36,586 nt of DNA from Myxococcales bacterium (GTDB lineage Bacteria; Myxococcota_A; Polyangia; Fen-1088): assembly GCA_003153015.1 (NCBI GenBank), contig PMBS01000127.1, positions 1 to 36,586 of the forward strand, in the 5' to 3' direction. The translations under genes were made by a program, and so were the position numbers. The notes beneath the pieces were generated by a model that made no database searches, was not told the origin of the DNA, and was given only the letters and a program-made list of their open reading frames with translations. The number at the start of each line of letters is the position of its first letter. Position 1 is the first letter of the stretch. This document shows, piece by piece, positions 4,238 through 33,748 of this stretch.

Positions 4238-4239
4238 GT

Positions 4240-4629
4240 TCACTCCTTTCTTTCGTTCGAGGAAGATGCGCGTTGCGGACCGTGGTCGTTGGCCGCCCCG
4301 CTGTCCGTCCCGTCCTCATCGCACTCCAGCAGCATGAGCGCTTCTTCCCCTCCACCGACCTCGGCCGTCACCGCGCCTTCGTGACCCATTTCATCGGCCA
4401 TCGCTCGCGCTCGCTGCATCCCAGCCACCACCGCCCATGCCGACTGCGCCGCCACCGGCGTGCCGGACATGGACTGCTCCAACCGGCGCAGGAGCCGCTC
4501 ACGCCGCCGTGCCCACCCCGTCCCGTCGGTGGCGTTGTCACGGCAGGGCTCCCGGCGTTCAAGCTTTGCAGCGGTTGCCTGCTCGGCCATCGCCTCGGAC
4601 CGCAACGCGGGTTTCGTCTTGGGGGCCAT
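4240..4629 (-). CDS. Small hydrophilic protein of unknown function in the coupling-ATPase cluster
   Basis: This 129-residue charged protein has a basic, Arg-rich middle (around R-R-R-E-R-L-L-R-R-L) and an acidic, Ser/Asn-rich tail. No known domain is recognised. AGGAG at 4640-4636 lies six bases before the ATG at 4629, which makes this a better start than the upstream ATG at 4635 or TTG at 4650. It sits directly upstream of the coupling ATPase, two bases apart, so the two are probably translated together. A DNA-binding accessory role would fit the composition and position but is speculation. Confidence 0.7.
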   Translation of the reverse strand: MAPKTKPALRSEAMAEQATAAKLERREPCRDNATDGTGWARRRERLLRRLEQSMSGTPVAAQSAWAVVAGMQRARAMADEMGHEGAVTAEVGGGEEALMLLECDEDGTDSGAANDHGPQRASSSNERKE

Positions 4630-8365: not shown

Positions 8366-8382
8366 GGGGTCGATTGTACACC

Positions 8383-11300
8383 ATGACGTGGCGTGATACC
8401 CTGGCGGACGAAATGGCTTCGCCTCCGAAGTACGCTGGACCAGCCGCGCCGCCCACCGAAGCCTACAAGGAGGCGCGGAGCCCCCAGACCGAAGCCTACC
8501 GGGACGATAGGGCCGGTACACAGGCCTATCGGGACGGCGGCGGCTCGCCTTCGACCGAGGCGTACACGCGTGGAAGAGCGCCAGCGCGTTCAGACATGCA
8601 GGGTGAACTGCCCGTGGGCACGGAGGTCAAGCTTTCGTGCGGAACTGTTGCGGTGGAACAGGTCATCTCGCATGAGCGCGCGACCGGTGAGGCCGCCGTG
8701 TACCTGGTCGGTGACGGCCAGGGACGCAAGTACGCCCTCAAGCTCTACCACGAGTTCAGTGACGCCAGGGACGAGCCGAATCCGGTAGCACTCGAGCGCA
8801 TCCAGGGAATTGAGGACCCCGACATCCTGCGACTGCACGCGTTCGGCACGGGAAAGGACAAGTATGATGGGCGCTGTTGGGAGCTAAGTGCATTTGCCGA
8901 GGGCAAAACGCTCCTAGATGTTCCGGACCTCGGCGCAAAGTACACGCCCGACTTCATCCGGAACTGCGTTGTTCCGCAGATCCTCAACGGAATCCAGAAA
9001 CTACACAAGCATCAGATCATTCACTGTGATCTCAAGCCACAGAATATCTTCTACCTGGACAGTGACCAGCTTGACCTAGTCATCGGTGACTACGGATCTT
9101 CCAAGACCGCGGAAGAAGGATCCAAGAAGGAGGTATCATACGCATCGACGAACAAGGCGACTCCGCTGTACATCGCACCTGAGCAGGCGATAGGACTCAT
9201 CGGCAAAGGGAATGACTACCACGCATTCGGGATGACTCTCGTCCACCTACTTTTCCCCAAGATGCTGAACAAGTCCGAATACGGCAAGATCCGGGAAAGG
9301 CAGTTCAACAAGAAACCCATCGTTATCGAATCTCCCGCGGAACACAAGGACATCGTTCAATTGATAGGCGGGCTCACTCTCCACGACGAGAGCCTTCGCT
9401 GGGGCGCGGCCGAGGTGCAACGGTGGCTTGCGGGCGAGAATGTTCCGGTCCGATATAGCAACGAGGCTGCCGTCGACCCGATCAAGCTTGGCCGGGACCG
9501 GACGATCCAATCGCCATCGGACCTGCTGGACTATGTCGAAACCAAGCCCGATTGGTACGAGACGTTGATCGCGGATGATGTGGGTTTCACTAGCTTGAAA
9601 AGGTGGGTTTCTCAGACGCGCGATTTGGAGCAGATGCGCGATTTCGACAAGCGCGTCCGGACCTGCCAGCAGGATAGCAAGGAATACGTTCAGGTGGCGA
9701 TCCTACGCTTCTTCGAGCCTGAGCGTCCCATCATGGTGGATGGCCGGCGGTACGATCTGTGGGGGGCGGAGAACCTACTGGTGGAAGTCACGCGTCTGGT
9801 CCGTCATCTCGATGATCTCTGGAAGATCGTGGCCCTTGCGCAGTTGCGCTTCCATGTGTTCCAATTGGAGATGTCACTGCGGCAACTCGCCGCAATTGAC
9901 GGACGCGGCGACGACGCCAAGCAAGTCTGCGGTCTGATTGAGGCTGCACTGCGAACCGTCGGAAATTGGTACGCGAGCCTCACGCAGGAACAAGTGCTTG
10001 AACTCGCGTATGCGTTCATGCCCGATCGGGGATTTCGCGATGGCAAGGGCACCGAGTGTCGTGACCTGGAGACGCTGGGGCTGTATTTCGCACGCACACC
10101 GGGCGCCTACGAGGAACAATGGCTCGCGGTCGAACGACACCGTTTTCTTCGGCAGCTCAATCGGGCTGATTTTCAGGACATGGACTACAGGACGTTCCTG
10201 TTCGGAGTGTTTCGCGAGCGGATTCGCTGCGGGTTGGAGCTGCAAGAGGTGAAGCAGAACTTTGTGGGCTATGAGGTGCTGTTTCGAGCCGGGCGCTCAC
10301 TAACGGGTTTCTTCACGTCGAGGGGGATCACCAACAAACTGTTCGAAGTCAGCCAGAAGCCCGAGAGTGCGGTGGTTGCAAACCGGAATCTGTGGCTAGC
10401 TTCTCGCTTCTCTGGCCACGCGCTGGCCCGCCAACTCGAGGCCGAAGTCGTTGGTGTTGTGGCAGACGTCCACCGCCTTGGCGTTTCGACGCTAGATGTC
10501 GCATCCCGGAGGGCATTCCAGAGGGATCTGTTCAAGTTCGCCCGATCAGCAACCCGACCATTTCGTGTCGCAGCGTTTGCAACTCTGGCAGTGATCGCAA
10601 CGGTGAGCGGGATCATAGTTGCCTCCTCCATCAGCGCAGGCTCACGTGACCGCGAAATCGATAGGCGGCTCAAGGTTGTTGAGCAGGCCTCGCTGCAACA
10701 AAACTGGACCGCTGCGTTGGAGGAGCTGGATAGCCTTAGGGAGCAGTTCAAGAGCGATCTGCTTGCGAACAACGCGGGGCGACGGTTTAGTGGTCTTGCG
10801 TTGACGGCCTGCCGCAGCGTACTGGGAAAGAAGTGGGACTCCTCGAGCCCAAGCACCGCCTTCGCCGAAGTAACTGGGCACGGGTCCTGCGAGAGCGTCC
10901 GCGGGTCCATGCGAGAGGACGTCGCCGGGCGCGTGTTTGCAATGGGCACCCAGCCTTCCGCACTAGACAGAGCCGGTGATGCTGCGGTACGGGAGGCTAT
11001 CGCCCACTTCCGCGCATCACCGCGATCCGTCGATCAGTCGAGATGGCTTGATCTGGCAATGCTCTGCCACGGGGGCCAATGGACCGCATCCGGCTCGCAG
11101 TCGAAGTCCGGAGAGGTCGGGATGATCTTCAAAGACAAATACAATATCTCTGTTCGCGCCGTGGATGTGGCCTGGAGCCCCCCCGCGTCGGCGCGCTTCG
11201 CATTCGAATACACTCTCCACGGCGAGACACACGGGGTGAACGTGTTTTGCGCTCCCAGCTTGTTCGCGAATGGCCGCGAGTACAAGCCGGTTGACAGGTC

Positions 11301-11904
11301 GTGCAGTAGATTCACGGCAGACAACCAAACCCTTCGGAATGAGTTCACCTACGCGCTGCCGCCGGCCGCTCTGCTGACGACAACAATGCGGTTTGACGCG
11401 TATAGCGATTTGTCGTTTATGTTGCGTGTGGCGGCCAATAGTCCCGATCCGCCATCGTCGTGTACCGACGTGGTCCCGTTGACCGACTTCCGCACGGTCA
11501 GTCAACGCCGTTCAGCCCCGACGCGCGTGGTGCGGCCGACGAGTGGGTTGGCAGGGCAGGAAGCGGGCAGTGCTCAACCCGGAGTGTCGGCGGGGGCTGT
11601 TGATCCGGCGGAGCTACAGGGGGCGTGGACAGGCAACCTGCAAGGTGGCGGCCAGATCAAGCTGATAGTGGAAGATGCGAGCAGTCGCATCGTCGAGGCG
11701 ACCGCCACGACCATGACCAGCGACGGTGAGTTCAACACGTTGAAGCTGCGTGGCCCGCTGAACGGAAGATCGTTGGTGCTGCGGGCTGATGATGGTTCAC
11801 GCCTATCCGTCAAACACAAAGACAGCGGGGCCGGGGAAATGCTCGCCGGCAGCTGGCAAGTGAAAGGCGGTCCAAGATTGTCTTGGACCGGGAAGAAGCG
11901 ATGA
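8383..11904 (+). CDS. Giant membrane-bound Ser/Thr protein kinase with N-terminal TEAY repeats
   Basis: From the ATG at 8383 the product has 1173 residues; TTG 8374 or ATG 8413 are alternatives. Residues 25-61 hold four T-E/Q-A-Y repeats. A Hanks-type kinase domain follows at about 90-380. It has the ATP-binding lysine in Y-A-L-K-L (K120), the catalytic loop H-C-D-L-K-P-Q-N (D216, N221), D-Y-G at 236-238 in place of D-F-G, and Y-I-A-P-E. The glycine loop is poorly conserved. A long helical region leads to one hydrophobic segment at about 728-752, after which roughly 420 residues would be outside the cytoplasm. The last 100 residues are beta-rich (G-A-W-T-G-N), like small lipocalin-type domains. 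Its stop overlaps the next gene as ATGA. HCD instead of HRD marks a non-RD kinase, so activation-loop phosphorylation may not be its main control. Confidence 0.9.
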   Translation: MTWRDTLADEMASPPKYAGPAAPPTEAYKEARSPQTEAYRDDRAGTQAYRDGGGSPSTEAYTRGRAPARSDMQGELPVGTEVKLSCGTVAVEQVISHERATGEAAVYLVGDGQGRKYALKLYHEFSDARDEPNPVALERIQGIEDPDILRLHAFGTGKDKYDGRCWELSAFAEGKTLLDVPDLGAKYTPDFIRNCVVPQILNGIQKLHKHQIIHCDLKPQNIFYLDSDQLDLVIGDYGSSKTAEEGSKKEVSYASTNKATPLYIAPEQAIGLIGKGNDYHAFGMTLVHLLFPKMLNKSEYGKIRERQFNKKPIVIESPAEHKDIVQLIGGLTLHDESLRWGAAEVQRWLAGENVPVRYSNEAAVDPIKLGRDRTIQSPSDLLDYVETKPDWYETLIADDVGFTSLKRWVSQTRDLEQMRDFDKRVRTCQQDSKEYVQVAILRFFEPERPIMVDGRRYDLWGAENLLVEVTRLVRHLDDLWKIVALAQLRFHVFQLEMSLRQLAAIDGRGDDAKQVCGLIEAALRTVGNWYASLTQEQVLELAYAFMPDRGFRDGKGTECRDLETLGLYFARTPGAYEEQWLAVERHRFLRQLNRADFQDMDYRTFLFGVFRERIRCGLELQEVKQNFVGYEVLFRAGRSLTGFFTSRGITNKLFEVSQKPESAVVANRNLWLASRFSGHALARQLEAEVVGVVADVHRLGVSTLDVASRRAFQRDLFKFARSATRPFRVAAFATLAVIATVSGIIVASSISAGSRDREIDRRLKVVEQASLQQNWTAALEELDSLREQFKSDLLANNAGRRFSGLALTACRSVLGKKWDSSSPSTAFAEVTGHGSCESVRGSMREDVAGRVFAMGTQPSALDRAGDAAVREAIAHFRASPRSVDQSRWLDLAMLCHGGQWTASGSQSKSGEVGMIFKDKYNISVRAVDVAWSPPASARFAFEYTLHGETHGVNVFCAPSLFANGREYKPVDRSCSRFTADNQTLRNEFTYALPPAALLTTTMRFDAYSDLSFMLRVAANSPDPPSSCTDVVPLTDFRTVSQRRSAPTRVVRPTSGLAGQEAGSAQPGVSAGAVDPAELQGAWTGNLQGGGQIKLIVEDASSRIVEATATTMTSDGEFNTLKLRGPLNGRSLVLRADDGSRLSVKHKDSGAGEMLAGSWQVKGGPRLSWTGKKR
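8455..8565 (+). repeat. Four TEAY/TQAY peptide repeats in the kinase N-terminus
   Basis: The motif T-E-A-Y or T-Q-A-Y occurs at residues 25, 36, 46 and 58, separated by 10-12 residues of polar, probably disordered sequence and followed each time by a charged residue. Each holds a threonine and a tyrosine that a kinase could modify. Confidence 0.8.
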
Positions 11905-13163
11905 CCAACCGGTCGCTGGCGACAGTATCCTTGGTCCTCCTCGCGGCCATGTCTGCAGCCTGCATCAATGTGACGAGTGAGGCGGTGAGCAAGGACGAAC
12001 AGGCCAGGACGTACGTCCGCAGGCAGCCCGCAAGCAAGGACGAGCCACGGATAGCGGTCTCCGGCAGTGGAACGCGCCTTGTCATCACGGCGCGCCGGCA
12101 GCCCCTGTGCACGGAAGAAACCGTTGAGGTGTCCGAACGAGTCGAGGTGACAACTACCAAACCTGCTGCTGACAAGGACAAGGATTGGTTGGGAGGCTGC
12201 TGGATTGCAGGGGTGCTCGGTGTGGGAACTGGTGTGGTCAGCCTGGCGATTTCGCCTGCTCTCTCCAATAAGCACACGACCGACGACCAGGGCAAAGACG
12301 CGGGAAGTGATCGGCAAGCAGCGTACATGGTTGGGCTGGCGGGCCTGCTTGTAGGCGTGCCAACGCTCTTGGCCGCCATCATCGACCAGAGTAGACTCGG
12401 AACAAGTGAAAAGCGAGGTGCTCCGAGTGAGAGCGTCACTGCAACGCGGGATGTCCCATGTGGTGATGGTCATCCAGTCCCCAACGCTCAGATCACCGTG
12501 TCCGGGTCCGTGGAGTCAGCGGTCGCGGGCCAGACGAACTCGCAGGGGCAGGCAGAGCTTGACCTTCGATCTTTGCCGAATTTTGTCCGAGAGGAAATTG
12601 CCAATCTGGGCCACTTTGTCGTGGCAATTGACGGTCAGGATCCTGCGAGAGCCGAATGGTCTTTGCCCGAAGCAACCGTGGCTATTCTGCGCAACGAAGC
12701 GCCAACACAGGGCCCGACCAGCGGCAGCGCACCACTGACTCCGCTGTCAGCATTGGCGTCTCCGATTTCTGGGGTCATCCACCTTGAGAAATGTGAAGTG
12801 GATGACGGTCGGAAGAGCCGGATGGATCTGGCAATGGGTAACGGCAACGGACAGATCGATCGGGAGGAGATGGTCGAGATCACCTGCCAGCTAAAAAACA
12901 CCGCGTCCACTGAAGTCGGCGATTTTCGACTGGAGCCCGTGAGCGGCAACTCCGATGTGATTCTTACGAAACTCCAGCCCCTCAAGCTGCCAGTGTGGCT
13001 CTCTCAAGCTGTGCATTCTGTGACCTTCGGCCTTTCGGTCAAGAAGAAGTATGATCTTCTCGAGTCCGCCCCCCTGCCCGTGAGCATTCGTGTTACTCAA
13101 AACACGGGTCGCGTTGTGGCAGACGTGCCGCTCGGGTTGCGCCTTGGCGGACTTGGGAGATAG
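11901..13163 (+). CDS. Lipoprotein with two hydrophobic segments, partner of the giant kinase
   Basis: The 420-residue product starts with a signal peptide ending in a lipobox-like S-A-A-C, so Cys21 would be lipidated and Ile at the next position favours the outer membrane. Two glycine-rich hydrophobic stretches at about 95-118 and 138-160 are unusual for a lipoprotein. The second half is beta-rich and contains a short T-V-S-G-S-V-E segment like a carboxypeptidase-regulatory fold. The start at 11901 overlaps the kinase stop (ATGA), so translation is coupled. The lipoprotein may sense or relay a signal with the kinase's extracytoplasmic part. The role is inferred from coupling only. Confidence 0.75.
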   Translation: MTNRSLATVSLVLLAAMSAACINVTSEAVSKDEQARTYVRRQPASKDEPRIAVSGSGTRLVITARRQPLCTEETVEVSERVEVTTTKPAADKDKDWLGGCWIAGVLGVGTGVVSLAISPALSNKHTTDDQGKDAGSDRQAAYMVGLAGLLVGVPTLLAAIIDQSRLGTSEKRGAPSESVTATRDVPCGDGHPVPNAQITVSGSVESAVAGQTNSQGQAELDLRSLPNFVREEIANLGHFVVAIDGQDPARAEWSLPEATVAILRNEAPTQGPTSGSAPLTPLSALASPISGVIHLEKCEVDDGRKSRMDLAMGNGNGQIDREEMVEITCQLKNTASTEVGDFRLEPVSGNSDVILTKLQPLKLPVWLSQAVHSVTFGLSVKKKYDLLESAPLPVSIRVTQNTGRVVADVPLGLRLGGLGR

Positions 13164-13277: not shown

Positions 13278-14339
13278 ATGGCGCCGCCGCAGCCCCAGCA
13301 ACGCACGCTACGCGAAGCGGTCGCGGCGCTTGTGGCAGCGCCGCGTGATCGCGCGCTGCTGGGCGAGGTGGCCGGGCTGTCCCTGCCCTATGTGGAACAA
13401 GGGGTGCAGTACATGCTGGCATCGGTGGCAGACGATCCGCGATCGCTCGGCCAGTACGATCAGTTTGTCGGGGAATTTCTGGCTGAAAAGTTCGACGATT
13501 CGAGGTTCATCGTCATGCTAGCAGGGGCAGACGCGCCCGGGCCGTTTCTGGCAAGAGCCGCGCACAACTTTGCGGCTTCGTCCCTTCGAAAGACTGGCTT
13601 GCCCCGCGACACCCAGGGGCTGGGACCAGGCCGAGCGCATGACCCTGACGAACCGGGGGTGTCATGTCACCCTGACCCCTCGCCGGGCCAGGAGGAGCTT
13701 GCTTTGGCGGTCGAGCGGACTACAGCCATGCGATGGGTTCTCGACGAGTTGCCGATCGACGAGCGCGTGCTGTTGAAGGTGATGTACGCCTGCGATTCCG
13801 CCCTGGACGACGAAGAGCTGCGTTTTCTCGCGGACAGACGCGGCGTTGCTTCCGAGGTCGTACGTCGGGAGATCGCAGCGCGGGCAGAGCGCAGCGAGGC
13901 GCGGGGACTTGAGCTGGCGCGATCGGTGGACGAGCGCGCGGGCTACGTCTCGGAGTTGCGCGAGCGGCGTCGTCGCTGCGCCCGCATCATCGCGGAGGTG
14001 GACGGCGAGCCGACGTCCGACGTTGCGCCGGGCATCCTTGAACTCCACGTCAGCGACCGGAAGGCCCGCGGCGCGTCCCCTGAGTGGCGTAGCAGTCAAC
14101 TGGCGGCGCTGGACACCCGCATCGCGCAGCAGGAGCGCCTGCTGGAGCAGGAATACGCCAAGCTTGCGGACCCGTTGCATGGACGCCCGAATTACCAGGA
14201 AGCCGCATTGCTGTTGGGATACGTGCGGATCGATGATGGTGCCGAACACATCAAGACAGCAGCCAATACCGCGCAAGTCGATGTCAAGCGGCTGCTAGCC
14301 AAGGTAGGGCGTGGCTTTCGCGATAGGGGGGAAGAATGA
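13278..14339 (+). CDS. ECF-type RNA polymerase sigma factor-like protein with long C-terminal extension
   Basis: This 353-residue protein shows the two blocks of ECF sigma factors. A region 2-like segment contains F-L-A-R-A-A-H-N-F-A-A-S-S-L-R-K (about residues 94-109). A region 4-like segment starts with M-R-W-V-L-D-E-L-P-I-D-E-R-V-L-L-K (about 154-170) and continues into a helix-turn-helix. The roughly 130 residues after region 4 are charged and helical and end in a second possible helix-turn-helix. ECF factors are usually about 200 residues, so this extension is extra and may hold an attached regulator. A TAGTAT box eight bases before the ATG suggests a leaderless transcript. The stop overlaps the next gene (ATGA). 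It likely directs RNA polymerase to a small set of promoters. Confidence 0.7.
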   Translation: MAPPQPQQRTLREAVAALVAAPRDRALLGEVAGLSLPYVEQGVQYMLASVADDPRSLGQYDQFVGEFLAEKFDDSRFIVMLAGADAPGPFLARAAHNFAASSLRKTGLPRDTQGLGPGRAHDPDEPGVSCHPDPSPGQEELALAVERTTAMRWVLDELPIDERVLLKVMYACDSALDDEELRFLADRRGVASEVVRREIAARAERSEARGLELARSVDERAGYVSELRERRRRCARIIAEVDGEPTSDVAPGILELHVSDRKARGASPEWRSSQLAALDTRIAQQERLLEQEYAKLADPLHGRPNYQEAALLLGYVRIDDGAEHIKTAANTAQVDVKRLLAKVGRGFRDRGEE

Positions 14340-14833
14340 GGTCGGCGGCGACCAGCGGTGTGCAGTGGAAGATCGCTCCCTTCGGGGTGCAGAGCTTCCA
14401 GAGTCAGAAGATGGAGCGGCACCACGTCAAGAAGCATGTCCTGAACCCCGACGAGCAGTGGGCTACTCTGTCCGTCAACCTGGCCAAGGCTGTGTTCCGA
14501 GCCACGGCCGCAGCGTCTCCCTCGCAGCTAGACGATCTCATGGATGCCCTTGCGCACGCGTATGTCGGCTTCGTGCAGACCCATACCTGCGAGCCAAAGA
14601 ATATCGGTGCAGTCGGGACCGGCCTCCACCTTGACGAAGGGCGGTATCCGATCCGCGTGGTTCACGCCTGGACCCGACTCGGGCTGTATGTTTCTTTTCA
14701 GTACTTGAACACTGCCCCGTCAGTTCTCATGACCGCTATGCGTCCCATACCCAGATTGATGCAACCGCCATTTACCCAGGAGAACTACGTGTACCTGGCG
14801 CGCAAGAAGTACGTAGACAGACAGGACTGGTAG
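14336..14833 (+). CDS. Hypothetical protein coupled to the sigma factor gene
   Basis: This 165-residue protein has an N-terminus rich in His and Lys, then an alpha-helical middle and a hydrophobic beta stretch (L-G-L-Y-V-S-F-Q-Y-L) around residues 116-125. No family is recognised. It overlaps the sigma-like gene by four bases, so the two are translated together. A position immediately after an ECF factor is typical of anti-sigma factors, but it has no membrane segment and no zinc motif typical of them. Confidence 0.7.
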   Translation: MRSAATSGVQWKIAPFGVQSFQSQKMERHHVKKHVLNPDEQWATLSVNLAKAVFRATAAASPSQLDDLMDALAHAYVGFVQTHTCEPKNIGAVGTGLHLDEGRYPIRVVHAWTRLGLYVSFQYLNTAPSVLMTAMRPIPRLMQPPFTQENYVYLARKKYVDRQDW

Positions 14834-14865: not shown

Positions 14866-15996
14866 ATGAGCCGCATCCAGGACTTGACCGACCATCTTTA
14901 CGACTTGCTCGACCGCACGGGCATGGAGCGGAACGACTTCATCGCCCTGGCTGTGATTGGCGAGTCCCACCGACAGGCACTGGCCCTTTGCGGCGAGGCG
15001 CCACCGCGGGCGACGGAGGTCCACCAGCGCTGGTTGGCGCGCTTGAAGGAGATTGCCGCAGACAAGACGCGAACTTGGCTGGTGACGTTTTCTGAGCTGA
15101 ACGAAGATTTGAACTCCGTGTGGCGGGAACTGAAGGAAGCGGCTAATAAACCCGATGTCGGGGCTTGCGCGGACGCGTTCGACGGCGTCGAGGAGGTCAT
15201 GGCTGTAGCCACGGTCTGTGCCCACATCGGCTGGCTGCGGGCACAGGAGTTCGAGGAGCTGGCATCGCGCGCAGAGACGGAGGCGCGCAAGCTGGCTCCC
15301 AGGATGCCGGAGCTATGGGAATACGCGTATCAACGCTACGCGAGAGCCCTTCCCGATGGCGAGTTTCCTCGATCCCATGCTTGGCTCGAGCTTTTTGCGC
15401 GGCTGGCCCCGGTTCGCGTAGCTATGGCATCGGCCAGTCGATTGTACTCGCCGGAAAAACGCGCCCAGGTCGCTCTTCGTGCGGTCAACAAGATTCTGCT
15501 GCCTGACACGAGCAGCGTTTGGGAGACGTTGAAGGCGGCTCTCGCGCCGCCGGCTGTCCGCCGTGCGGTTCGGGGCACACAGCAGGTTGTCGCCTTCGTG
15601 CGCTGTAACCTCGATCGGGTTCTCAGCGGTGTGCAATTGGACGCATTCCGCGAGTATGTTCGGAATCTTGCTGTTGTTCACGTGCCCGGCGCCGGTGTTC
15701 CCCTGACGGCAGCTGCCCCGCAGAGTCTTAGGAAGGAATTCGACTTTCAGGGCGGCATTGATATCGAGGTCCATCTAGTGTGGACGTCGGCGGAATTGAC
15801 TGTGACCTACAGAATTGATCCCCCCCAAACCGGCGCACTGGTTCTCTTTCTCGAAGACGCAAAGACCGGCGAGCCACTGGCCTCTGTTGCGGTGCCTGCG
15901 GATGTGGACAGCGAGAAGACCTGCTCCGTGTCAACGAAAGAGCTGGGCTTCGATCCAACGGCGAGACTGTGGCAGCTTCGGGTGATGCTTGCGTAG
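14866..15996 (+). CDS. Hypothetical mostly helical protein in the sigma/Lon-fusion operon
   Basis: This 376-residue soluble protein is helical up to about residue 270, with Ala- and Arg-rich segments. It then has a short beta-rich domain (about 275-376) with E-V-H-L-V-W and T-V-T-Y-R-I strands. No domain is recognised. It begins 32 bases after the previous stop and ends eight bases inside the following Lon/phosphatidyltransferase gene, so it belongs to the same operon. The C-terminal beta domain could be a binding module. Confidence 0.7.
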   Translation: MSRIQDLTDHLYDLLDRTGMERNDFIALAVIGESHRQALALCGEAPPRATEVHQRWLARLKEIAADKTRTWLVTFSELNEDLNSVWRELKEAANKPDVGACADAFDGVEEVMAVATVCAHIGWLRAQEFEELASRAETEARKLAPRMPELWEYAYQRYARALPDGEFPRSHAWLELFARLAPVRVAMASASRLYSPEKRAQVALRAVNKILLPDTSSVWETLKAALAPPAVRRAVRGTQQVVAFVRCNLDRVLSGVQLDAFREYVRNLAVVHVPGAGVPLTAAAPQSLRKEFDFQGGIDIEVHLVWTSAELTVTYRIDPPQTGALVLFLEDAKTGEPLASVAVPADVDSEKTCSVSTKELGFDPTARLWQLRVMLA

Positions 15997-17242
15997 ACCG
16001 GAAGCAGTCCCGCGCATCGTTTTCCCGAATGTCGAGGGCGACCGGGCGAGGCCCATAGAGATCTCGGTCCGAACGCCCAACCCGATAGATCCGGCGCGGC
16101 AGAGCCAGCTTACTGCTGCCGAAATCGAAACCCTCCATCTAGACGATATCATACTGGCCTGCATGAGTCTGCGGATACCCCGCCTGCGAATCCTCCGTTC
16201 GTGGAGTGTTGATTGGGGTGGCGGCGCGCGTCCGACGCTGAACGGGCGCTCTGCGCAGCTTGCCGGGGTACTGGCCTACCTGGCTGGCGTGCGTGGAAGA
16301 AACGGGACGCGTCTGCGCGGTTGGTTGCGGGACACGCCCACGGTGTGGGCCACTGGTTCACTGCGACTGCTGGAGGATCCCGCTGATCCGCAGGTTGAGC
16401 CGTGGAGCATTGACGGGGCCTTACCCGATGCGACCATGCTTTGCAAGTTCGAGGCGTTCGCCGCGTCGGCTGCGCGCGTATTCTTCGTGCCGAAGTCGGA
16501 AGTTCCCCACATCGGGCCCAGGGCCAATCAGACTGGCATCCAGGTCGTGAGCGTTGCTGAGTTCGGGCGCCTGCTCAAGGGCGCGCTGGACGTCAGCGTG
16601 CGATACGTCGTCGCCGTCGATGTCTCCGAATTGCGTGCGATGGTGGATGCGGTGCTTGAGGGGGTCTTCCCCCGCGGCCCTGGCTTCTGGCTCGCGAACG
16701 CCTTCACAGCGGTGCGCGTTCCCTGTGGCGTGGTGGCCGCTTGGCTTGCCTTTCGCGGGCAGTTCAACGACGCGGCCTCGCTCTATGTTGCTGGCCTGCT
16801 GACCGATGTCGCCGATGGCGTCGCCGCACGCTACCTCCACGGCACTAGCGAGTTCGGCAAGAAGTTCGACAGACAAACGGACATGGCCTTCAACTTCGTC
16901 GTCGGACTAGGCATGATAGCTGGCTGGGCGCACTCGCCCCACGGTATAGCGAAGACGGTTGCGCTTCTTGCGCTCACAGTGGGGCTCATGGCCGCATCCA
17001 GGCTGCTCGGCGCCCAACCCGGCTCCGGCGTCGCCAAACTTCGCAGCGGATGGATCCGGGCAGTCTTGCTCGTGTTCATCGTCCTGCACATGGACTGGAG
17101 CCTCAGTGCGGCTAGGCTCGTCTCTACCACCGTCGCCGCCCTTGCCCTTGTGGGAGTCTCTTTGTACGAAATCGACCAAGTCTGTCGAGATGTCCCGTCG
17201 GGAAGAAGGGGCTGGCTTAGGAAGCGGCCCAAGACCGAGTGA
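15989..17242 (+). CDS. Lon-type (S16) protease domain fused to a CDP-alcohol phosphatidyltransferase
   Basis: The start is the TTG at 15989, the first possible start after a stop; no good ATG exists. Residues 80-200 resemble the proteolytic domain of Lon without its ATPase. N-G-R-S-A matches the Lon G-P-S-A-G motif (S88). An ungapped stretch from L-C-K-F-E-A-F to V-F-F-V-P-K aligns with Lon G-L-K-E-K-L-L...V-L-I-P and places K153 on the catalytic lysine. The second half has the complete CDP-alcohol phosphatidyltransferase signature, D-G-x2-A-R-x8-G-x3-D-x3-D (D276, G277, A280, R281, G290, D294, D298). Several hydrophobic helices lie at about 232-410. That family makes phospholipids by swapping CMP on CDP-diacylglycerol for an alcohol. 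The polypeptide ends in a basic tail. Both active sites look complete. Confidence 0.8.
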   Translation: MRRPEAVPRIVFPNVEGDRARPIEISVRTPNPIDPARQSQLTAAEIETLHLDDIILACMSLRIPRLRILRSWSVDWGGGARPTLNGRSAQLAGVLAYLAGVRGRNGTRLRGWLRDTPTVWATGSLRLLEDPADPQVEPWSIDGALPDATMLCKFEAFAASAARVFFVPKSEVPHIGPRANQTGIQVVSVAEFGRLLKGALDVSVRYVVAVDVSELRAMVDAVLEGVFPRGPGFWLANAFTAVRVPCGVVAAWLAFRGQFNDAASLYVAGLLTDVADGVAARYLHGTSEFGKKFDRQTDMAFNFVVGLGMIAGWAHSPHGIAKTVALLALTVGLMAASRLLGAQPGSGVAKLRSGWIRAVLLVFIVLHMDWSLSAARLVSTTVAALALVGVSLYEIDQVCRDVPSGRRGWLRKRPKTE

Positions 17243-18375: not shown

Positions 18376-20931
18376 CTAGCACCGCCCACAGTCGCCGTGG
18401 CCCGACAGCCGGCGCAGCATGCTGAGTTTGGTCCCGCAGCGGATGCAGAGGCCTGAGCGGCGCCGTTCGATTTCCAGCATCTCACGATCCAATTGTCTTT
18501 GTGCAGCCTCGGCCGCCTCCCTGGCTTTCCGCTGTCGCGTTTCAGCCGCCTCTTTGGCCTTGCGCTCCTGCTCCTCAGCCGCTTGTCTGGCCATGCGTTC
18601 CCGTTCCTCGGCCGCCTCCGTGGCCTTCTGCCTGACCGCCTGGATGCGTTCCCAGCCGACGCGGGGCAAGACGCCTTCGACGGGCACATCCCAGACCACG
18701 ATAGCCCCGTAGTAGGGACACGTACAGGCGAACAGTGCCCCGTCTGGGCCGAAGGTCCCCGAAAAGACAGAAGTGTGGCACTTGTCGGGGTCGGAGAGTG
18801 TGGCGAATTCGCGAAGCTTGTATGTGTCCCAAAGATCGACGATACACCTTTCGCGGCCGCCGCTGGCAAGTAGTGAACCGTCAGGGCTAAAGATGATGAA
18901 TTCAACTCCGTCGGAGTGTCCGACCAGCGTAGCGACTTCACCACGCTCATGCACGTCCCAAAGCTTAATGGCACTGCAACCGCGTGCAGCAGCTGCGGCG
19001 AGCCGCGAGCCGTCTGGACTGAAGGCGAGCAACATGAATCCGTCGGCGTGCCCAGCCAGCGTCGCGACTTCGCGGTGCTCACGTACGTCCCAGAGTTTGA
19101 TGCTACTGGGACTCCCGAATTCTACATAGGCGAGCAACGAACCGGTAGGGCTGAAGGCCCCCCATTGACACTTGGGGAAGGCGACAATTTCGCGGCGATG
19201 GTGGACATCCCAGAGCTTGACGGTATTGTCGTTCGAGGTACCGGCGAGCAATGCGCCGTCTGGGCTGAAGGCGCCCACCGAGCACATGGGGAAGGCGGCG
19301 AGTTCGCGGCGCGCGTGGACGTCCCAGAGCCTGCCGCTATCGCCGCCGCTTCCGCTGGCGAGCAGAGTGCCATCTGGACTGAAGACGACAGAATAGACCT
19401 CTGCAGGGTGGGACGCTAACGTGCAGAGCTCGCGGCGCTCGTGCACGTCCCAGAGCCTGACGCTACCGCTCTTCCGATCACCGTCCCCGGTTGCGAGCAG
19501 CGAGCCGTCAGGGCTGAAGGCGATGCAATGGACGACGCCGTAGTGCCCAGTCAAGGTAGCGAGTTCGCGGTGCTCGTGCACGTCCCAGAACGTGATGACC
19601 TGCTTGCCGCCAACGCCTCGACAGGCGAGCAACGAGCCGTCCGAGTTGAACGCGCCATAATATCCGTCATAAGTCCCGAAGAAGTTGTCTAGCTTCCGGG
19701 CCGAACCCGTCCGCCTGACGTTGGCCGAAATGCGGTCGATTGCGGACAGAGCGTGCTGGCAATCGAGCAGGGTATTCCGCGCGAGCATCTGCTCGATTTT
19801 GGCGAGTAATGCGTCGATGTCTCGTCGATCCGATTGGGCCTCCTCGCCGATGAAGACGTATGAGTCAATCTCACGCCGCTTGGCGACTAGCGCTTCCCTG
19901 GTTCGGGAAAGAAACTCGTCACGGAGCCTCGTGAGCGACGCAGTTACGGCTGTGTGCATTGCGGCAAAGATTCGGTCGTCCATCACCCGCAGGCCGTACT
20001 TGCCGTCAGTCGCGACCGCCATCTGGAGTGAGGCGATCGCCTCCTCGGTCTTGCCGAGAAGTGCCAGGCCGGAAGCGGCCTGATAGTGCGCCTGTCCCAG
20101 AGCGGGTCGCAGGGCTGCGGCAGCCAATGCATGACGAACCGATTCCTCAAGCCGTCCTCGAGAGCCAGCCGCATCGCCCGCAAGCTGAGCCTCGCTGGCA
20201 AGTAGGAAACAAGCGATCGCAGCGTGAAGGAGTGCCTCGCCGGTGCTCGCCGAGGCCTCGGGCAGGAAACTAATCTCGGCCCTGCCGAACCGGGCAGCCA
20301 GCAGGAGGTGATTCCGGGCTTTCTCAAGGTTGACAACGTCGTCGTCATCATCCTTTCCGTAGAGATAGAGCCGTCCAAGCTGAAGCTGGGTCAGAAAGTC
20401 GGTGTCGTTCTTCTCTTCCGACTTCAGGAAGGCCTCGAGCGCCTTGTCGAGCAGGCCCCGTTCCAAGCGCTCACACCCGGCCCGGAAGAATTCCCGGGCC
20501 TGGGTGAGGGTTGGGTTTTCCAGCGTCTTGTGGATTGCGTCGAGACGTTCGACCACACCCAGAAGCAGTCGGCTCTGGACTTGCAGCTGAGTCACAATCA
20601 GCCCCATATTGTAACTGAAGGTGGCGTTCAGATCTTCGATGGATGAACGCACGTTATCCAGTCCCTGGGATACCAACCTGAAGCCCCAGTCCAGAGTCCG
20701 GTTGACCGCGTTGAAACCACGACCGAACTCATCGGTGAGCGCCTCATTGCTAGCGACGACGGCCTCGGTCTGGTCCGAAATCGCGGTACAGGTGGCCGCC
20801 GTGGACGACTCTATTGATCCCGCGACACTGGCACCGGCACTTCTGATTGCACCTGTGATGTCACGGACAAACGAGTTGGCTTGGAGGTAGTCGGAGTACG
20901 TTGTTCGGCCAAAGGGGTAGTACACTGACAT
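18376..20931 (-). CDS. WD40 propeller protein with TPR-like N-terminus and C-terminal zinc ribbon
   Basis: The 851-residue protein begins with a helical region (1-140), followed by TPR-like helices (about 140-310). From about 415 to 755 there are eight WD40 repeats, each ending in a variant of L-W-D-V-H, with F-S-P-D-G-S-L-L-A strands. A charged coiled coil (about 760-815, rich in Ala, Glu and Arg) leads to C-x2-C-x15-C-x2-C at residues 829-851, a likely zinc ribbon. WD40 propellers are scaffolds, and fused WD40 proteins of this kind often accompany Ser/Thr kinases in large-genome bacteria. GGAGGTG (20943-20937) five bases before the ATG is a strong ribosome site. The protein has no signal peptide, so it is cytoplasmic. 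Confidence 0.9.
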   Translation of the reverse strand: MSVYYPFGRTTYSDYLQANSFVRDITGAIRSAGASVAGSIESSTAATCTAISDQTEAVVASNEALTDEFGRGFNAVNRTLDWGFRLVSQGLDNVRSSIEDLNATFSYNMGLIVTQLQVQSRLLLGVVERLDAIHKTLENPTLTQAREFFRAGCERLERGLLDKALEAFLKSEEKNDTDFLTQLQLGRLYLYGKDDDDDVVNLEKARNHLLLAARFGRAEISFLPEASASTGEALLHAAIACFLLASEAQLAGDAAGSRGRLEESVRHALAAAALRPALGQAHYQAASGLALLGKTEEAIASLQMAVATDGKYGLRVMDDRIFAAMHTAVTASLTRLRDEFLSRTREALVAKRREIDSYVFIGEEAQSDRRDIDALLAKIEQMLARNTLLDCQHALSAIDRISANVRRTGSARKLDNFFGTYDGYYGAFNSDGSLLACRGVGGKQVITFWDVHEHRELATLTGHYGVVHCIAFSPDGSLLATGDGDRKSGSVRLWDVHERRELCTLASHPAEVYSVVFSPDGTLLASGSGGDSGRLWDVHARRELAAFPMCSVGAFSPDGALLAGTSNDNTVKLWDVHHRREIVAFPKCQWGAFSPTGSLLAYVEFGSPSSIKLWDVREHREVATLAGHADGFMLLAFSPDGSRLAAAAARGCSAIKLWDVHERGEVATLVGHSDGVEFIIFSPDGSLLASGGRERCIVDLWDTYKLREFATLSDPDKCHTSVFSGTFGPDGALFACTCPYYGAIVVWDVPVEGVLPRVGWERIQAVRQKATEAAEERERMARQAAEEQERKAKEAAETRQRKAREAAEAAQRQLDREMLEIERRRSGLCIRCGTKLSMLRRLSGHGDCGRC

Positions 20932-21167: not shown

Positions 21168-23495
21168 TCATTCGGTGACGGCTCCCCCGCCTGCCTTGCG
21201 CTGCTTGCGTAGCGCCTGCACGAGTTTCATGTTCTCCAGGTCGGGCGTGCCCTTCTTGGCGACATCTCGCGAGGCATTGGGATCGAAGGCCGGCCGATTC
21301 TGAAGGGGGCTGCCTTCGCAATAGTAGAACCAATCCTGCGCACCGGTGTTGAGACGGCGACCGTAGCGCGCCAGGGGTGCGTTGATGAGGAAGCCGAGTT
21401 CCTCCGCGGTGAGCGACTTCATGTCGTCGTCCGTGAGCATCTCCCCAGAGAGAGCCTTGGTGACGGCCGCAAGCAACTCTTGGCGCACGTTCTTGCGGAC
21501 CACGAGTTCGTCGGACCAGGATTTCGCTTCCTTGTTGTCGGGATTCGCCACTCTCGCCTCGGCAAACATGCGTTCGGCTTCGTCCCAGTTGTTGCGGGCC
21601 GAAGCAATGCGCCCAAGGTTGCGGGCCGCAGAAGCCTTCACCTGGGGATCTGTGGCCAGGTCGAGCGCTTTGCGTGCGGCTTGTTCTGCGCCAGTATAGT
21701 CACCGCGGCCGCAAATGTCATACGCTGCCCGGTAGGTGGCGAACCCGAGTACTGACCAGGCCTCTGCACAACCGGGGTCGATCTGGGTGGCTTGCCTGGC
21801 CTTGTCGACTGCCTCGCGGAACCACGCGGTATCAGTAGGTTTCTGCGCCTTCTTTGACGAAAGCTTCAGCGCGGCGGCGAGGGGTTCGCCATTCGCGGGA
21901 TCGCGAGCCTTGGAACAAGGGACGTCGCCCTGTCCGCCCGGCGTGTTCACCGCCGTGCCAGGGGTGGGCGTCGGACTGGCGGCCGGCCCCCGCGTCCAGC
22001 GCCGCAACTCACGGTGCATGGGGCCGCTCTCCTCGAGCCAGACGAGAATGCTGGCCGGGTTCTCGACAAAGTAGGCACAGCCACGCTGGACCGCAGCGGC
22101 CTTCAGGGCGGGCCTATCCGGGAGCGGCGCGCATACCCAGACGTTTTGAGGGTTCAGGGCAAAAACGAAGCTCGATCCACGCCAAGACCAAGTCAGCTGA
22201 GTATCGAGCTTGGATTGTGAATCGTCGCGCAAGTCGGTGCAGTTGGCCTGAAAGCGAGCCTTGCCGTCTCGAAAGAACGTGTAGCGCGCATTCTCGCAAG
22301 TTTCCCGTGAGCCACCTTCGTCATCGAGAACCACCTCCCTCCACTCTCCGACCATGTTCGGAACTGGCGTATCAACTGCCGCACGGCTGCCCGCCGCAAG
22401 AGAAGGCGCCGGCTGCCCTAGTCGGGGTGGCGTCTGGGAGAACGCGCTCCCAGTATCCATTCTTGCTCTTCTCGTGGCGCCCTGGTCGCCAGGGTGCCAA
22501 TTGGAGAGCAGAAGGAAAGCCAGCGGGAAGTACAACAGGACCGCAAAGCGTGGGGCCCACCATCGCGCGCGATGCCCGAAGGTCACCGACGACGCCACGC
22601 CCGGGTCCGGAGCAGCCGGGGTCGGACGTTGTCCCATGGTTTCAGCCAGGGCGGCGCCTCGTACTGCGGTGGCCACGAGGCCAACCAAAAGAAGGTGCTC
22701 ACGTATGAGATCGCGGTGGCTCGGGGTTGTCCACGTCTTTGCGTAGTCAAGGCGGGCAAGCAACGAGGTTCCGAAGCACCAGCAGCCATACCACCGATCA
22801 TTCTCCCTTATGCTTGGCACCTGCCCGCGCGTCAGCCAAGCCGTGACCGCGAAGAAGGCCCAGGGCAGGCTGAAGGTGAGGAAATCGGCCACCCATGCGA
22901 CCAGCCAGATCGGCAGCCAGAGGAGGAGGTAGTTCAAGTGAAGCTTCTGGGCGATGTAGAAAAAGAAGAAGGTGAACGCCCGGAAGACGTGGATGCCAGC
23001 CCCCAGCAGCCAGTCGAAGCCGGGAATATGGATCAGACCACTCTTCAAGTGGCTCTGGTCGGCCCGTCGGTAGATTCGCTGCATGTGAGAGTCGGCGAGC
23101 GAATCAACGGAACGCCGCTGGTCGGCGGTCAACTCGTCGTCAGGGAGCGAGGGCGCGGGCACGCCCCGACGAGCGGCGCCAAGATCCATGGCCACGACCA
23201 CGGACCAGCAGAAGTCGACCATCTCCCGCGGAATCGTGTCCACCAGCCGCCGCAAGCGCGTCTTTTCTTCGTCAGGGTAGGGAATTGCCTCCACGGCCAC
23301 TGTCAGGCTGCCGCTGATCATGGACCGGGCCTCGGCCCGGTCGGCTTCGCTCGCTTGCGCGATGGCGTCCTTCGCGCCGACGTAGTCGTGGTCGTCGTAG
23401 CCGGCAACGTAGGGCGACGCCTTGCCTTTGGTCAGGCTGCCGATGAGGGCACGGAAGCTGTCAAACGGACCTATGTCTTCGGTACGCTCTACCAT
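21168..23495 (-). CDS. Membrane protein with beta domain, TPR and YARHG-like tail, paralogue 1
   Basis: The 775-residue product has a soluble N-terminus (1-160). Several hydrophobic helices lie at about 167-223, a weak one near 268-285, and one at about 315-331. A Pro-rich linker follows. Residues 378-495 form a beta-rich domain with paired cysteines (G-E-W-R-E opening). Residues 530-680 are TPR-like. The region around 700-740 (L-I-N-A-P-L-A-R-Y-G-R-R) resembles the extracellular YARHG domain. The first 376 residues are nearly identical to paralogue 2 at 23830-25380, and similarity ends sharply after A-A-V-D-T. GGAG precedes the ATG by five bases in both copies. Function unknown; the architecture suggests a membrane stem that displays different extracytoplasmic modules. 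Confidence 0.8.
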   Translation of the reverse strand: MVERTEDIGPFDSFRALIGSLTKGKASPYVAGYDDHDYVGAKDAIAQASEADRAEARSMISGSLTVAVEAIPYPDEEKTRLRRLVDTIPREMVDFCWSVVVAMDLGAARRGVPAPSLPDDELTADQRRSVDSLADSHMQRIYRRADQSHLKSGLIHIPGFDWLLGAGIHVFRAFTFFFFYIAQKLHLNYLLLWLPIWLVAWVADFLTFSLPWAFFAVTAWLTRGQVPSIRENDRWYGCWCFGTSLLARLDYAKTWTTPSHRDLIREHLLLVGLVATAVRGAALAETMGQRPTPAAPDPGVASSVTFGHRARWWAPRFAVLLYFPLAFLLLSNWHPGDQGATRRARMDTGSAFSQTPPRLGQPAPSLAAGSRAAVDTPVPNMVGEWREVVLDDEGGSRETCENARYTFFRDGKARFQANCTDLRDDSQSKLDTQLTWSWRGSSFVFALNPQNVWVCAPLPDRPALKAAAVQRGCAYFVENPASILVWLEESGPMHRELRRWTRGPAASPTPTPGTAVNTPGGQGDVPCSKARDPANGEPLAAALKLSSKKAQKPTDTAWFREAVDKARQATQIDPGCAEAWSVLGFATYRAAYDICGRGDYTGAEQAARKALDLATDPQVKASAARNLGRIASARNNWDEAERMFAEARVANPDNKEAKSWSDELVVRKNVRQELLAAVTKALSGEMLTDDDMKSLTAEELGFLINAPLARYGRRLNTGAQDWFYYCEGSPLQNRPAFDPNASRDVAKKGTPDLENMKLVQALRKQRKAGGGAVTE

Positions 23496-23829: not shown

Positions 23830-25380
23830 TCACCACTCAGGCGGCTTGTCACTCCGGATGGGCTCATAGTTTGTCGTTGGGCGACCGTTTTGGTCGATAT
23901 ACCCTCTGCGTGAGATGTATTGCTTGCTTCCTGCGCAGTTGGGATTTTCCGCAATCACGGCAAGAAACCTTGCATTCCTGCCATTGCCGGTTGATCTGAA
24001 CTGAAACTGAAGAAACCTGAGAAGCTTGTTGTCTGGCAGTCCGAAATTGAGCGATTTCCAAGGCTCGCGCGCGAAGATGCGCGCAACATCGACGTCCGTC
24101 GTCCGCCCATTGCACAAACTCGGAGTGAAGTGTCGGGAACCTTTCGGGAACGAATAGTTTTTCCCGCTCTGGTCCCAGGCGGCCAAGGCACCCGCATACA
24201 TCACGTTCAAACGCCCAACCACAACTTCATCCAGTGACGGGCCAACGGTGCGCGTATCTACTGCCGCGCGGCTGCCCGCCGCAAGAGAAGGCGCCGGCTG
24301 TGCTAGTCGGGGTGGCGTCTGGGAGAACGCGCTCCCAGTATCCATTCTTGCTCTCCTCGTGGCGCCCTGGTCGCCAGGGTGCCAATTGGAAAGCAGAAGG
24401 AAAGCGAGGGGGAAGTACAACAGAACCGCGAGGCGCGGAACCCACCATCGCACGCGATGCCCGAACTTCACCGGCGACGCCACGCCCGGGTCCGCCGCAG
24501 CCGGGGTCGGACGTTGCCCCATGGTTTCGGCCAGCGCCGCGCCTCGTGCTGCGGTGGCCACCAGGCCAACCAAGAGAAGGTGCTCACGTACGAGATCGCG
24601 GTGGCTCGGGATTGTCCACGTCTTTGCGTAGTCAAGGCGGGCAAGCAATGAGGTTCCGAAGCACCAGCAACCGAACCACCGATCGTTCTCCCTTATGATC
24701 GGCACCTGCCCGCGCGTCAGCCAAGCCGCGACCGCAAAGAAGGCCCAGGGCAAGCTGAAGGTGAGGAAATCGGCCACCCATGCAACCAGCCAGATCGGTA
24801 GCCAGAGGAGGAGGTAGTTCAGGTGAAGCTTCTGGGCGATGTAGAAGAAGAAGAAGGTGAATGCCCGGAAGACGTGGATGCCGGCCCCCAGCAGCCAGTC
24901 GAAGCCGGGGATATGGATCAGACCAGTCTTCAAGTGGCTCTGGTCGGCTCGTCGATAGATCTGCTGCATGTGAGAGTCGCTCAGCGACTCGGCAGAATGC
25001 CGCTGATCGTCGGTCAACTCCTCGTTCGGGAGCGATGGCGCCGGTACGCCTCTACGAGCGGCGCCAAGATCCATGGCCACGACCACGGACCAGCAGAAGT
25101 CGACCATCTCCTGCGGAATCGTGTCCACCAGCCGCCGCAAGCGCGTCTTTTCTTCGTCGGGGTAGGAAATCGCCTTGATGGCCACCGTAAGGCTGCCGCT
25201 GATCGTGGACCGGGCCTCGGCCCGGTCGGCTTCGCTCGCTCGCGCGATGGCGTCCTTCGCGGCGACGTAGTCGTAGTCGTCGTAGCCGGCAACGTAGGGC
25301 GACGCCTTGCCTTTGGTCAGGCTGCCGATGAGGGTGCGGAAGCTGTCAAACGGACCTAGGTCTTTGGTGTACTCTGCCAT
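23830..25380 (-). CDS. Membrane protein with pilin-like C-terminal domain, paralogue 2
   Basis: The ATG at 25380 (GGAG five bases upstream) gives 516 residues; the open frame extends further but without a ribosome site. Residues 1-376 repeat the soluble N-terminus and membrane helices of paralogue 1. The remaining 140 residues are different. They include E-P-W-K-S-L-N-F-G-L, an aromatic strand, R-F-L-A-V-I-A-E-N and a final K-P-P-E-W. This order resembles the C-terminal half of type IV pilin-like proteins of delta-type proteobacteria, which have P-W-x-x-L-G-F followed by a beta sheet and an acidic end. The pilin resemblance is from pattern only. Two cysteines (in S-L-C-N and P-N-C-A) may form a disulphide. 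Confidence 0.8.
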   Translation of the reverse strand: MAEYTKDLGPFDSFRTLIGSLTKGKASPYVAGYDDYDYVAAKDAIARASEADRAEARSTISGSLTVAIKAISYPDEEKTRLRRLVDTIPQEMVDFCWSVVVAMDLGAARRGVPAPSLPNEELTDDQRHSAESLSDSHMQQIYRRADQSHLKTGLIHIPGFDWLLGAGIHVFRAFTFFFFYIAQKLHLNYLLLWLPIWLVAWVADFLTFSLPWAFFAVAAWLTRGQVPIIRENDRWFGCWCFGTSLLARLDYAKTWTIPSHRDLVREHLLLVGLVATAARGAALAETMGQRPTPAAADPGVASPVKFGHRVRWWVPRLAVLLYFPLAFLLLSNWHPGDQGATRRARMDTGSAFSQTPPRLAQPAPSLAAGSRAAVDTRTVGPSLDEVVVGRLNVMYAGALAAWDQSGKNYSFPKGSRHFTPSLCNGRTTDVDVARIFAREPWKSLNFGLPDNKLLRFLQFQFRSTGNGRNARFLAVIAENPNCAGSKQYISRRGYIDQNGRPTTNYEPIRSDKPPEW

Positions 25381-25525
25381 CGGGTCTCCATTTGCTTGTG
25401 GCTCTATCAGGCTCATACGTCTCGAAAAGGTGTCCACGCTGGTCAAGGACGTCGGGTCGACGGCTAATCTGACGGCATGCCGCATTGACTCACGCAGCAT
25501 CGGGGAATGTCATGGCGCGGTCAAG
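24253..25525 (-). repeat. Direct repeat, copy 2 (5' region and first 376 codons of paralogue 2)
   Basis: Second copy of the segment at 22368-23641, in the same orientation and 1885 bases further on measured from start codon to start codon. The divergence is mostly at third codon positions. Confidence 0.85.
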
Positions 25526-25846: not shown

Positions 25847-26566
25847 GTGTGGTTCGACGCAGCCGGATTCACTCAGAAGGCGCCATCCAAGCAGGCGAAT
25901 CAGGACCGAGTTCTCATCCAAGATTGCCTCCTAGAGTCGGGCGTGACGTGCGCGCCGAAGATGGCGGCATGCCGTTGTTTCGTCGCCGACGGTATCGGCG
26001 GAACTCGGGCGGCCGAGATCGCATCGGCCTTCGTGCTGGAACAGATCCGCGAGCGCCTTGTCGTTCCCCCTCCCGACGGCGGCGCGGGGCTGCGCGCGCT
26101 GTTCGAGGCCATCAACGCGGACTTGATCGCGCGCACCGCGCCCGACCCCGCGACATCTGGCGCGGGAACGACGCTTGTGGGGCTCCTGCACTGGCAGGAC
26201 GGATTTCGAATCGTCAACGCGGGGGACTCGGAGGCATGGATGATGCGCGAGGATCGGTTCTTCCGCCTTTCGGAGCGGCAGAGCCTGCGTGACATGCAGG
26301 ATGACAGCCCCGTAACCAGTTACTTCGGTGGCCCCGAGAGCGAACTCGACCTCTGCATGGACACGTCGCTCCGCGAGGTTCTGCCCGGGGACATCGTGCT
26401 GCTGTGTTCCGACGGGCTCTTCAAGGCGCTCGCGGTCGACCAAGTCAGGGCTGTCCTACGCAACAGCCGGAACCTGGCCGAGAAGGCCGAGTTTCTGTGC
26501 GCCAGCGTGGCCAAGCAGGATGCACCGGATGACACCAGTTGCATCCTTGTCCAGGCAGTGGCCTGA
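25847..26566 (+). CDS. PP2C-type Ser/Thr protein phosphatase
   Basis: This 239-residue, single-domain PP2C/SpoIIE-fold phosphatase removes phosphate from Ser/Thr using two metal ions. The family motifs are all present: N-Q-D (18-20), V-A-D-G-I-G-G (46-52), G-A-G-T-T-L (105-110), N-A-G-D-S-E-A (124-130), L-L-C-S-D-G-L (185-191) and D-D-T-S (228-231). Metal-ligand aspartates D48, D189 and D229 are conserved. The GTG start lies just after a -10-like box, so the mRNA is probably leaderless. It leads a five-gene operon ending in an FHA protein. Its likely targets are the phosphoproteins made by the kinase at 8383. A frameshifted relative lies next to that kinase. Confidence 0.92.
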   Translation: MWFDAAGFTQKAPSKQANQDRVLIQDCLLESGVTCAPKMAACRCFVADGIGGTRAAEIASAFVLEQIRERLVVPPPDGGAGLRALFEAINADLIARTAPDPATSGAGTTLVGLLHWQDGFRIVNAGDSEAWMMREDRFFRLSERQSLRDMQDDSPVTSYFGGPESELDLCMDTSLREVLPGDIVLLCSDGLFKALAVDQVRAVLRNSRNLAEKAEFLCASVAKQDAPDDTSCILVQAVA

Positions 26567-26611
26567 GATGCCCGCCTTCCGCCCGCCGAAGGACATGCCG
26601 GGAGGCCGAGA

Positions 26612-28180: not shown

Positions 28181-28214
28181 CGTTCCACCCGTTTAGCGAA
28201 AGGATGGCAGACCC

Positions 28215-33681: not shown

Positions 33682-33748
33682 AGGCCGCTGTCAGAGCGGC
33701 GGCTCGGCACGCGTCCCAGGAGGCACCCCAATTGGAAGGAAGACGATC

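What the first reader, a model, noticed from the sequence alone, without database searches (positions are those of the whole stretch)
15989..17242. Lon-type protease domain joined to a phospholipid synthase in one polypeptide
An ATPase-free S16 domain with an apparent Ser88/Lys153 dyad precedes a complete CDP-alcohol phosphatidyltransferase signature and membrane helices. I know of no characterised protein joining these activities. It might couple proteolysis or a protein-binding event to membrane lipid synthesis, and it sits in an operon led by an ECF-like sigma factor.
Basis: partly seen in the sequence, partly recalled or inferred. Interest (0 to 1): 0.85.

Follow-up and report, generated by a model that had tools for sequence, protein, structure and literature searches.

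The report
Lipid-synthase enzyme with odd front domain
One intact gene in a myxobacterium-like metagenome contig encodes a genuine membrane lipid-making enzyme joined to an unrecognised front domain that faintly resembles the protein-cutting part of the Lon protease; the joining was seen in no other genome searched, but the protease identity is only suggestive.

Summary
The reading frame is real: 417 codons (15989-17242, +), TTG start, overlapping the upstream gene by 8 bases, with the best codon score of all six frames along its whole length, so there is no sign of two genes joined by a frameshift. The second half is a secure CDP-alcohol phosphatidyltransferase (Pfam E 3.6e-12, complete active-site motif). 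The first half (1-230) matches no Pfam, NCBIfam, PHROG, PADLOC or PDB sequence. A Lon-domain profile scores -1.4 bits, and Pfam Lon_C does not list it at E<=10. Two single-sequence AlphaFold models are unusable (pLDDT 39), so the decisive structural test could not be done. Four Lon P-domain blocks do occur in the right order (S88 region, T122-G, K153...P168, C-terminal strand-helix), reached by about 0.4-1.3% of shuffled controls, and unguided alignment at two of three gap settings pairs S88 and K153 with Lon's Ser679 and Lys722. A diverged Lon-like fold is plausible, not shown; proteolysis is unsupported. No relative of the N-terminal domain or the fusion was found in relatives, class, phylum, GTDB-wide scans, plasmids, phages or viral contigs. 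The gene run starts with a Ser/Thr kinase gene; the claimed ECF sigma factor matches no sigma profile.

The parts
15989..17242 (+). Fusion gene, 417 aa, TTG start, 8-base overlap with the upstream ORF
15989..16678 (+). N-terminal orphan domain (residues 1-230); possible highly diverged Lon P-domain-like fold
   Evidence: No family match; ordered-block test positive, profile tests negative
16250..16252 (+). Codon of S88, candidate nucleophile
   Evidence: paired with the Lon Ser679 column at two of three gap settings
16445..16447 (+). Codon of K153, candidate general base; 15 residues before P168, as Lys722 is before Pro737 in E. coli Lon (E. coli numbering counted from memory)
16688..17122 (+). 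CDP-alcohol phosphatidyltransferase domain (residues 234-378)
   Evidence: PF01066 E 3.6e-12
16805..16882 (+). CDP-alcohol phosphatidyltransferase active-site motif DxxDGxxARx8GxxxDxxxD (residues 273-298)
14866..15996 (+). 376-aa orphan protein directly upstream, probably co-translated
14336..14833 (+). 165-aa orphan protein of the same gene run
13278..14339 (+).
11883..13163 (+). 426-aa predicted lipoprotein (lipobox-like ..AACI..)
8374..11904 (+). Ser/Thr protein kinase with long C-terminal region; first gene of the + strand run
   Evidence: PF00069 E 2.2e-18

Best explanation
The gene encodes a membrane-embedded CDP-alcohol phosphatidyltransferase, which uses a CDP-activated lipid (or alcohol) to make a phospholipid, preceded by an orphan domain of about 230 residues. 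That domain most likely works as a regulatory or binding module, possibly a strongly diverged Lon P-domain-like fold. It is the last gene of a six-gene kinase-led run on an accessory contig. The likely role is an accessory, possibly conflict-related, membrane-modifying protein whose enzyme is gated by the N-terminal domain in response to the kinase and the other orphan gene products. Shown: intact single gene, lipid-synthase domain with complete motif, gene order. Inferred: catalytic activity, substrate, gating, link to the kinase, conflict role. Not shown: proteolysis.
For: Single coding frame; PF01066 and full motif; distribution: fusion and neighbours absent from same-genus and class genomes, as for accessory genes; kinase at the head of the run; ordered Lon-like blocks; precedent of a CDP-alcohol phosphatidyltransferase proposed as a toxin domain (PMC3482391).
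Against: No relative of the N-terminal domain was found in anything searched, so its conservation, fold and role cannot be tested. The conflict role is by association only. A kinase-AAA-radical SAM-FHA-phosphatase cassette of the kind found on plasmids lies on the same contig, but 8 kb away and in a separate run.
Confidence: 0.45

Rival explanations
1. One reading: an active ATPase-free S16 Ser-Lys peptidase (S88/K153) fused to the lipid synthase, either cleaving itself to release or activate the enzyme or cleaving a partner at the membrane.
For: Unguided profile alignment pairs S88 and K153 with the Lon catalytic Ser and Lys columns at two gap settings, against 1/300 and 0/300 shuffles; four Lon blocks in native order, best of 24 orders; S and K in place in 0 of 2000 shuffles reaching the score. 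ATPase-free, membrane-attached Lon domains exist: YlbL (PMC6051672).
Against: Lon_C and own Lon profiles give no hit; total alignment score is not above shuffles; a competing register (167-182 on the GPSAG region) scores best at strict gap costs; block test alone puts the serine register 3 residues off; S-K spacing is 65 versus 43 in the local Lons.
Confidence: 0.15
2. The N-terminal domain is unrelated to Lon: a lineage-specific orphan domain, with the S/K and block resemblance due to chance and ordinary alpha/beta composition.
For: All standard profile and PDB searches negative; 13 of 2000 shuffles and two distinct unrelated ORF windows of about 1070 reach the same block score; block boundaries were chosen after inspection.
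Against: Correct block order is the best of 24 and the score exceeds 98.7-99.6% of controls; the C-terminal strand-helix-strand-helix pattern in the low-confidence model fits the P-domain C-terminus.
Confidence: 0.32
3. An ordinary housekeeping phospholipid synthase with an unimportant N-terminal extension.
For: The enzyme motif is complete.
Against: No orthologue in same-genus genomes; the own genome has another CDP-alcohol transferase-like match at C355; the extension is 230 coding residues, whereas long N-terminal stretches of the sampled relatives look like out-of-frame read-through (by inspection).
Confidence: 0.05
4. Assembly or frameshift artefact joining two genes.
For: Metagenome-style genome in 385 contigs; the fusion was seen once.
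Against: Uniform codon signal in one frame through the junction, in-frame join at a domain boundary, overlap with the upstream gene.
Confidence: 0.03

Closest known systems
CDP-alcohol phosphatidyltransferase family (PF01066; PssA, archaetidylserine and archaetidylinositol phosphate synthases)
   Same: Domain match over 145 residues and complete active-site motif
   Different: At most about 27% identity to sampled relatives; no equivalog cut-off reached, so the substrate cannot be named; carries a 230-residue N-terminal domain
YlbL (Bacillus subtilis), ATPase-free Lon domain with a membrane segment and PDZ domain (PMC6051672)
   Same: Would share an ATPase-free Lon-like domain attached to a membrane part, with a Ser-Lys pair
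   Different: YlbL's dyad (S234/K279) is reported by alignment to Lon and S234A does not complement; here no profile match, no PDZ, S-K spacing 65 rather than 45, and the membrane part is an enzyme
Lon protease P-domain (PF05362) and ChlI/ComM/RadA Lon-like domains (PF13541)
   Same: Order of four sequence blocks; ComM in the same test scores 60, this protein 44.7
   Different: No profile hit; no AAA+ domain
CDP-alcohol phosphatidyltransferase toxin domain of PVC-type secreted toxins (PMC3482391)
   Same: Same enzyme family in a proposed conflict setting
   Different: Here no delivery or processing domains were found

Membership tests
CDP-alcohol phosphatidyltransferase (PF01066) | Profile match above the curated cut-off | tested here: met
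   47.3 bits against cut-off 22
CDP-alcohol phosphatidyltransferase (PF01066) | Motif DxxDGxxARx8GxxxDxxxD | tested here: met
   residues 273-298
CDP-alcohol phosphatidyltransferase (PF01066) | Six membrane helices | tested here: inconclusive
   six helices 231-400 in a low-confidence model; about three clear hydropathy peaks
S16 / Lon proteolytic domain (PF05362) | Profile match | tested here: not met
S16 / Lon proteolytic domain (PF05362) | Catalytic Ser and Lys at the conserved positions | tested here: inconclusive
   paired at two of three gap settings, but a competing register exists
S16 / Lon proteolytic domain (PF05362) | P-domain fold | tested here: inconclusive
   models at pLDDT 39; no PDB fold match at E<=0.001
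S16 / Lon proteolytic domain (PF05362) | Peptidase activity | not testable with these tools
   needs purified protein
Lon A/B proteases | AAA+ ATPase on the same chain | tested here: not met
   no AAA match in the 417 aa
Polymorphic / PVC-type toxin | Delivery or pre-toxin domain N-terminal to the toxin domain | tested here: not met
   no Pfam match in residues 1-230

The most novel reading that the evidence does not exclude
An ATPase-free Ser-Lys peptidase of Lon type built into a phospholipid synthase, so that a proteolytic event at the membrane directly switches lipid synthesis on or off, as an effector of a kinase-led system.
Probability: 0.1. Interest if true: 0.75.

Novelty: new variant of a known kind. 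Interest (0 to 1): 0.4.

Why it matters
If the front domain is a Lon-type domain, this would be, as far as the searches here show, the first protein linking that fold with phospholipid synthesis, and it could reveal a way to switch membrane composition by a protein-binding or cutting event. Even without proteolysis, a lipid synthase with a large regulatory domain in a kinase-led accessory gene run is a testable candidate for a membrane-modifying effector. It rests on a single sequence, so the claim is fragile.

Tried and rejected
Weak tblastn/HMM hits for the N-terminal domain in class genomes (L022-L031): L022 lies in a glnE-like gene, and in the frames printed for the others I saw no Lon-like motif or fusion; judged noise by inspection. 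Long N-terminal stretches of other CDP-alcohol transferases: by inspection out-of-frame read-through, not domains. Sigma-like hit in G011: its neighbourhood holds ordinary genes, taken as noise. Fold search on the low-confidence model: nothing below E 0.8, discarded. Forcing a Lon-based alignment into AlphaFold was not done: circular, and MAFFT would not give the register. GTDB-wide scans with two peptide sets, plasmid, phage and viral scans: no relative.

Full report
Observation. The window is an entire contig, C38 of a 385-contig genome. ORF 15989-17242 (+) is open for 417 codons from a TTG directly after an in-frame stop at 15983. It overlaps the end of the preceding 376-aa ORF by 8 bases, with GGGTGA a few bases upstream of the start as a possible ribosome site (by eye). 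A codon log-odds trained on other genes of the window puts frame 0 first of six in every 60-codon window along the ORF, including the junction between the halves, and codon-position GC is alike in both halves. So I find no sign of two genes joined by an error; reads were not available.

C-terminal half. PF01066 (CDP-alcohol phosphatidyltransferase) matches residues 234-378 at E 3.6e-12, 47.3 bits against a cut-off of 22. The motif DxxDGxxARx8GxxxDxxxD is complete at 273-298. NCBIfam gives only sub-cut-off hits to PssA, archaetidylserine and archaetidylinositol phosphate synthases, so the substrate cannot be named. Identity to the nearest aligned relatives is at most 27%.

N-terminal half. Residues 1-230 have no Pfam hit at E<=10; the full protein has no NCBIfam, PADLOC or PHROG hit in that region, and residues 56-232 have no meaningful PDB sequence match. 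PF05362 run over the own genome and 19 relatives at E<=10 found several Lon-type loci in the own genome but not this one. A profile built from 30 Lon P-domains of those loci scores -1.4 bits with all filters off.

Ordered-motif tests. With a Lon position-specific matrix and affine gaps, the best local path at gap costs 8/0.5 and 7/0.5 pairs S88 with the catalytic Ser column and K153 with the catalytic Lys column; at 11/1 it does not. In 300 shuffles each, a Ser and a Lys were both paired 1, 0 and 0 times (8/0.5, 7/0.5, 11/1), but the total score is not above shuffles (262, 219 and 140 of 300 reach it). MAFFT gives S88/K153 together in one of twelve runs. A four-block test (SA helix, MTGE strand, K..P block, C-terminal strand-helix) scores 44.7: 4 of 1000 shuffles, 13 of 2000 further shuffles and 13 of 1000 column-permuted matrices reach it; the native block order is the best of 24. 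Of 1078 ORF windows, ten reach it: five are this protein, two are ComM (a known Lon-like domain), three are two distinct unrelated windows. No shuffle reaching the score also had Ser and Lys in place (0 of 2000). Within this test the K153 and T122-G blocks are firm, while the serine block prefers a register 3 residues off S88 (6.5 against 5.0). I chose the blocks and spacer limits after seeing the sequence, so these proportions are optimistic. I read this as modest evidence for a diverged Lon-like fold and weaker evidence for the exact dyad.

Structure. Two single-sequence AlphaFold jobs (full length; residues 1-228) gave mean pLDDT 39. The order of elements in the second (strands, helix 51-60, helix 86-98, strand 164-168, helix, strand 184-188, helix) fits a P-domain but at confidence too low to count. 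Foldseek against the PDB gave nothing below E 0.8.

Distribution. The fusion was not found in 58 relatives, nor its N-terminal domain in 317 other class genomes, nor in 378 other phylum genomes, where the listed matches lie mostly in the transferase part (the list was cut). GTDB-wide scans with two peptide sets, plasmids, phages and viral contigs gave nothing. The GTDB and viral scans find close relatives only. The 376-aa neighbour, the kinase tail and the sigma-like ORF also lack convincing counterparts in the genomes searched. The contig is thus accessory, mobile or possibly misbinned. That the host is myxobacterium-like is my inference from genome sizes of its class relatives, not a tool result.

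Context. The + strand run is kinase (8374-11904, PF00069 E 2.2e-18), lipoprotein, 353 aa, 165 aa, 376 aa, fusion, with short gaps or overlaps. Further along, 25847-31368 encodes PP2C phosphatase, an orphan 522-aa protein, a ClpB-like AAA protein, a NrdG-like radical SAM protein and an FHA protein. Relatives of the AAA and radical SAM genes sit together on plasmids of several phyla, with kinases, FHA, helicase and PIN genes in some. Whether the fusion gene belongs to that cassette is not shown.

Interpretation. Most likely this is a membrane lipid synthase controlled by an orphan N-terminal domain, in an accessory kinase-led gene run. A CDP-alcohol phosphatidyltransferase has been proposed as a toxin domain that makes disruptive lipids (PMC3482391), which makes an effector role conceivable. 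Proteolysis, gating and the kinase link are inference. Literature searches for this fusion found none in the held library; that library is open-access papers only.

Noticed in passing
25847-31368: PP2C phosphatase, orphan 522-aa protein, ClpB-like AAA, NrdG-like radical SAM and FHA genes form a cassette; AAA plus radical SAM homologues are neighbours on plasmids of Bacillota, Rhizobium, Moellerella and (on the same plasmid, farther apart) Geminocystis, with kinase, FHA, helicase or PIN genes in some.
   Followed up: partly
21168-23495 and 23830-25500 (-): Two tandem genes share a nearly identical N-terminal membrane region of roughly 400 aa but have different C-terminal parts (one with TPR repeats), as if C-termini were swapped (sequences; no alignment run).
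   Followed up: no
2081-4243 (-): TrwB-type conjugation coupling-protein domain (PF10412 E 1e-09), suggesting that the contig may be or carry a mobile element.
   Followed up: no
whole window (contig C38): The kinase tail, ClpB-like AAA and fusion genes have no close counterpart in the same-genus genomes searched, so the contig may be an island, a plasmid or misbinned.
   Followed up: partly
33647-34330: A ClpP-like peptidase gene lies near the ClpB-like AAA cassette.
   Followed up: no
18376-20931 (-): WD40-repeat protein of 851 aa with a C-terminal region ending in Cys pairs.
   Followed up: no
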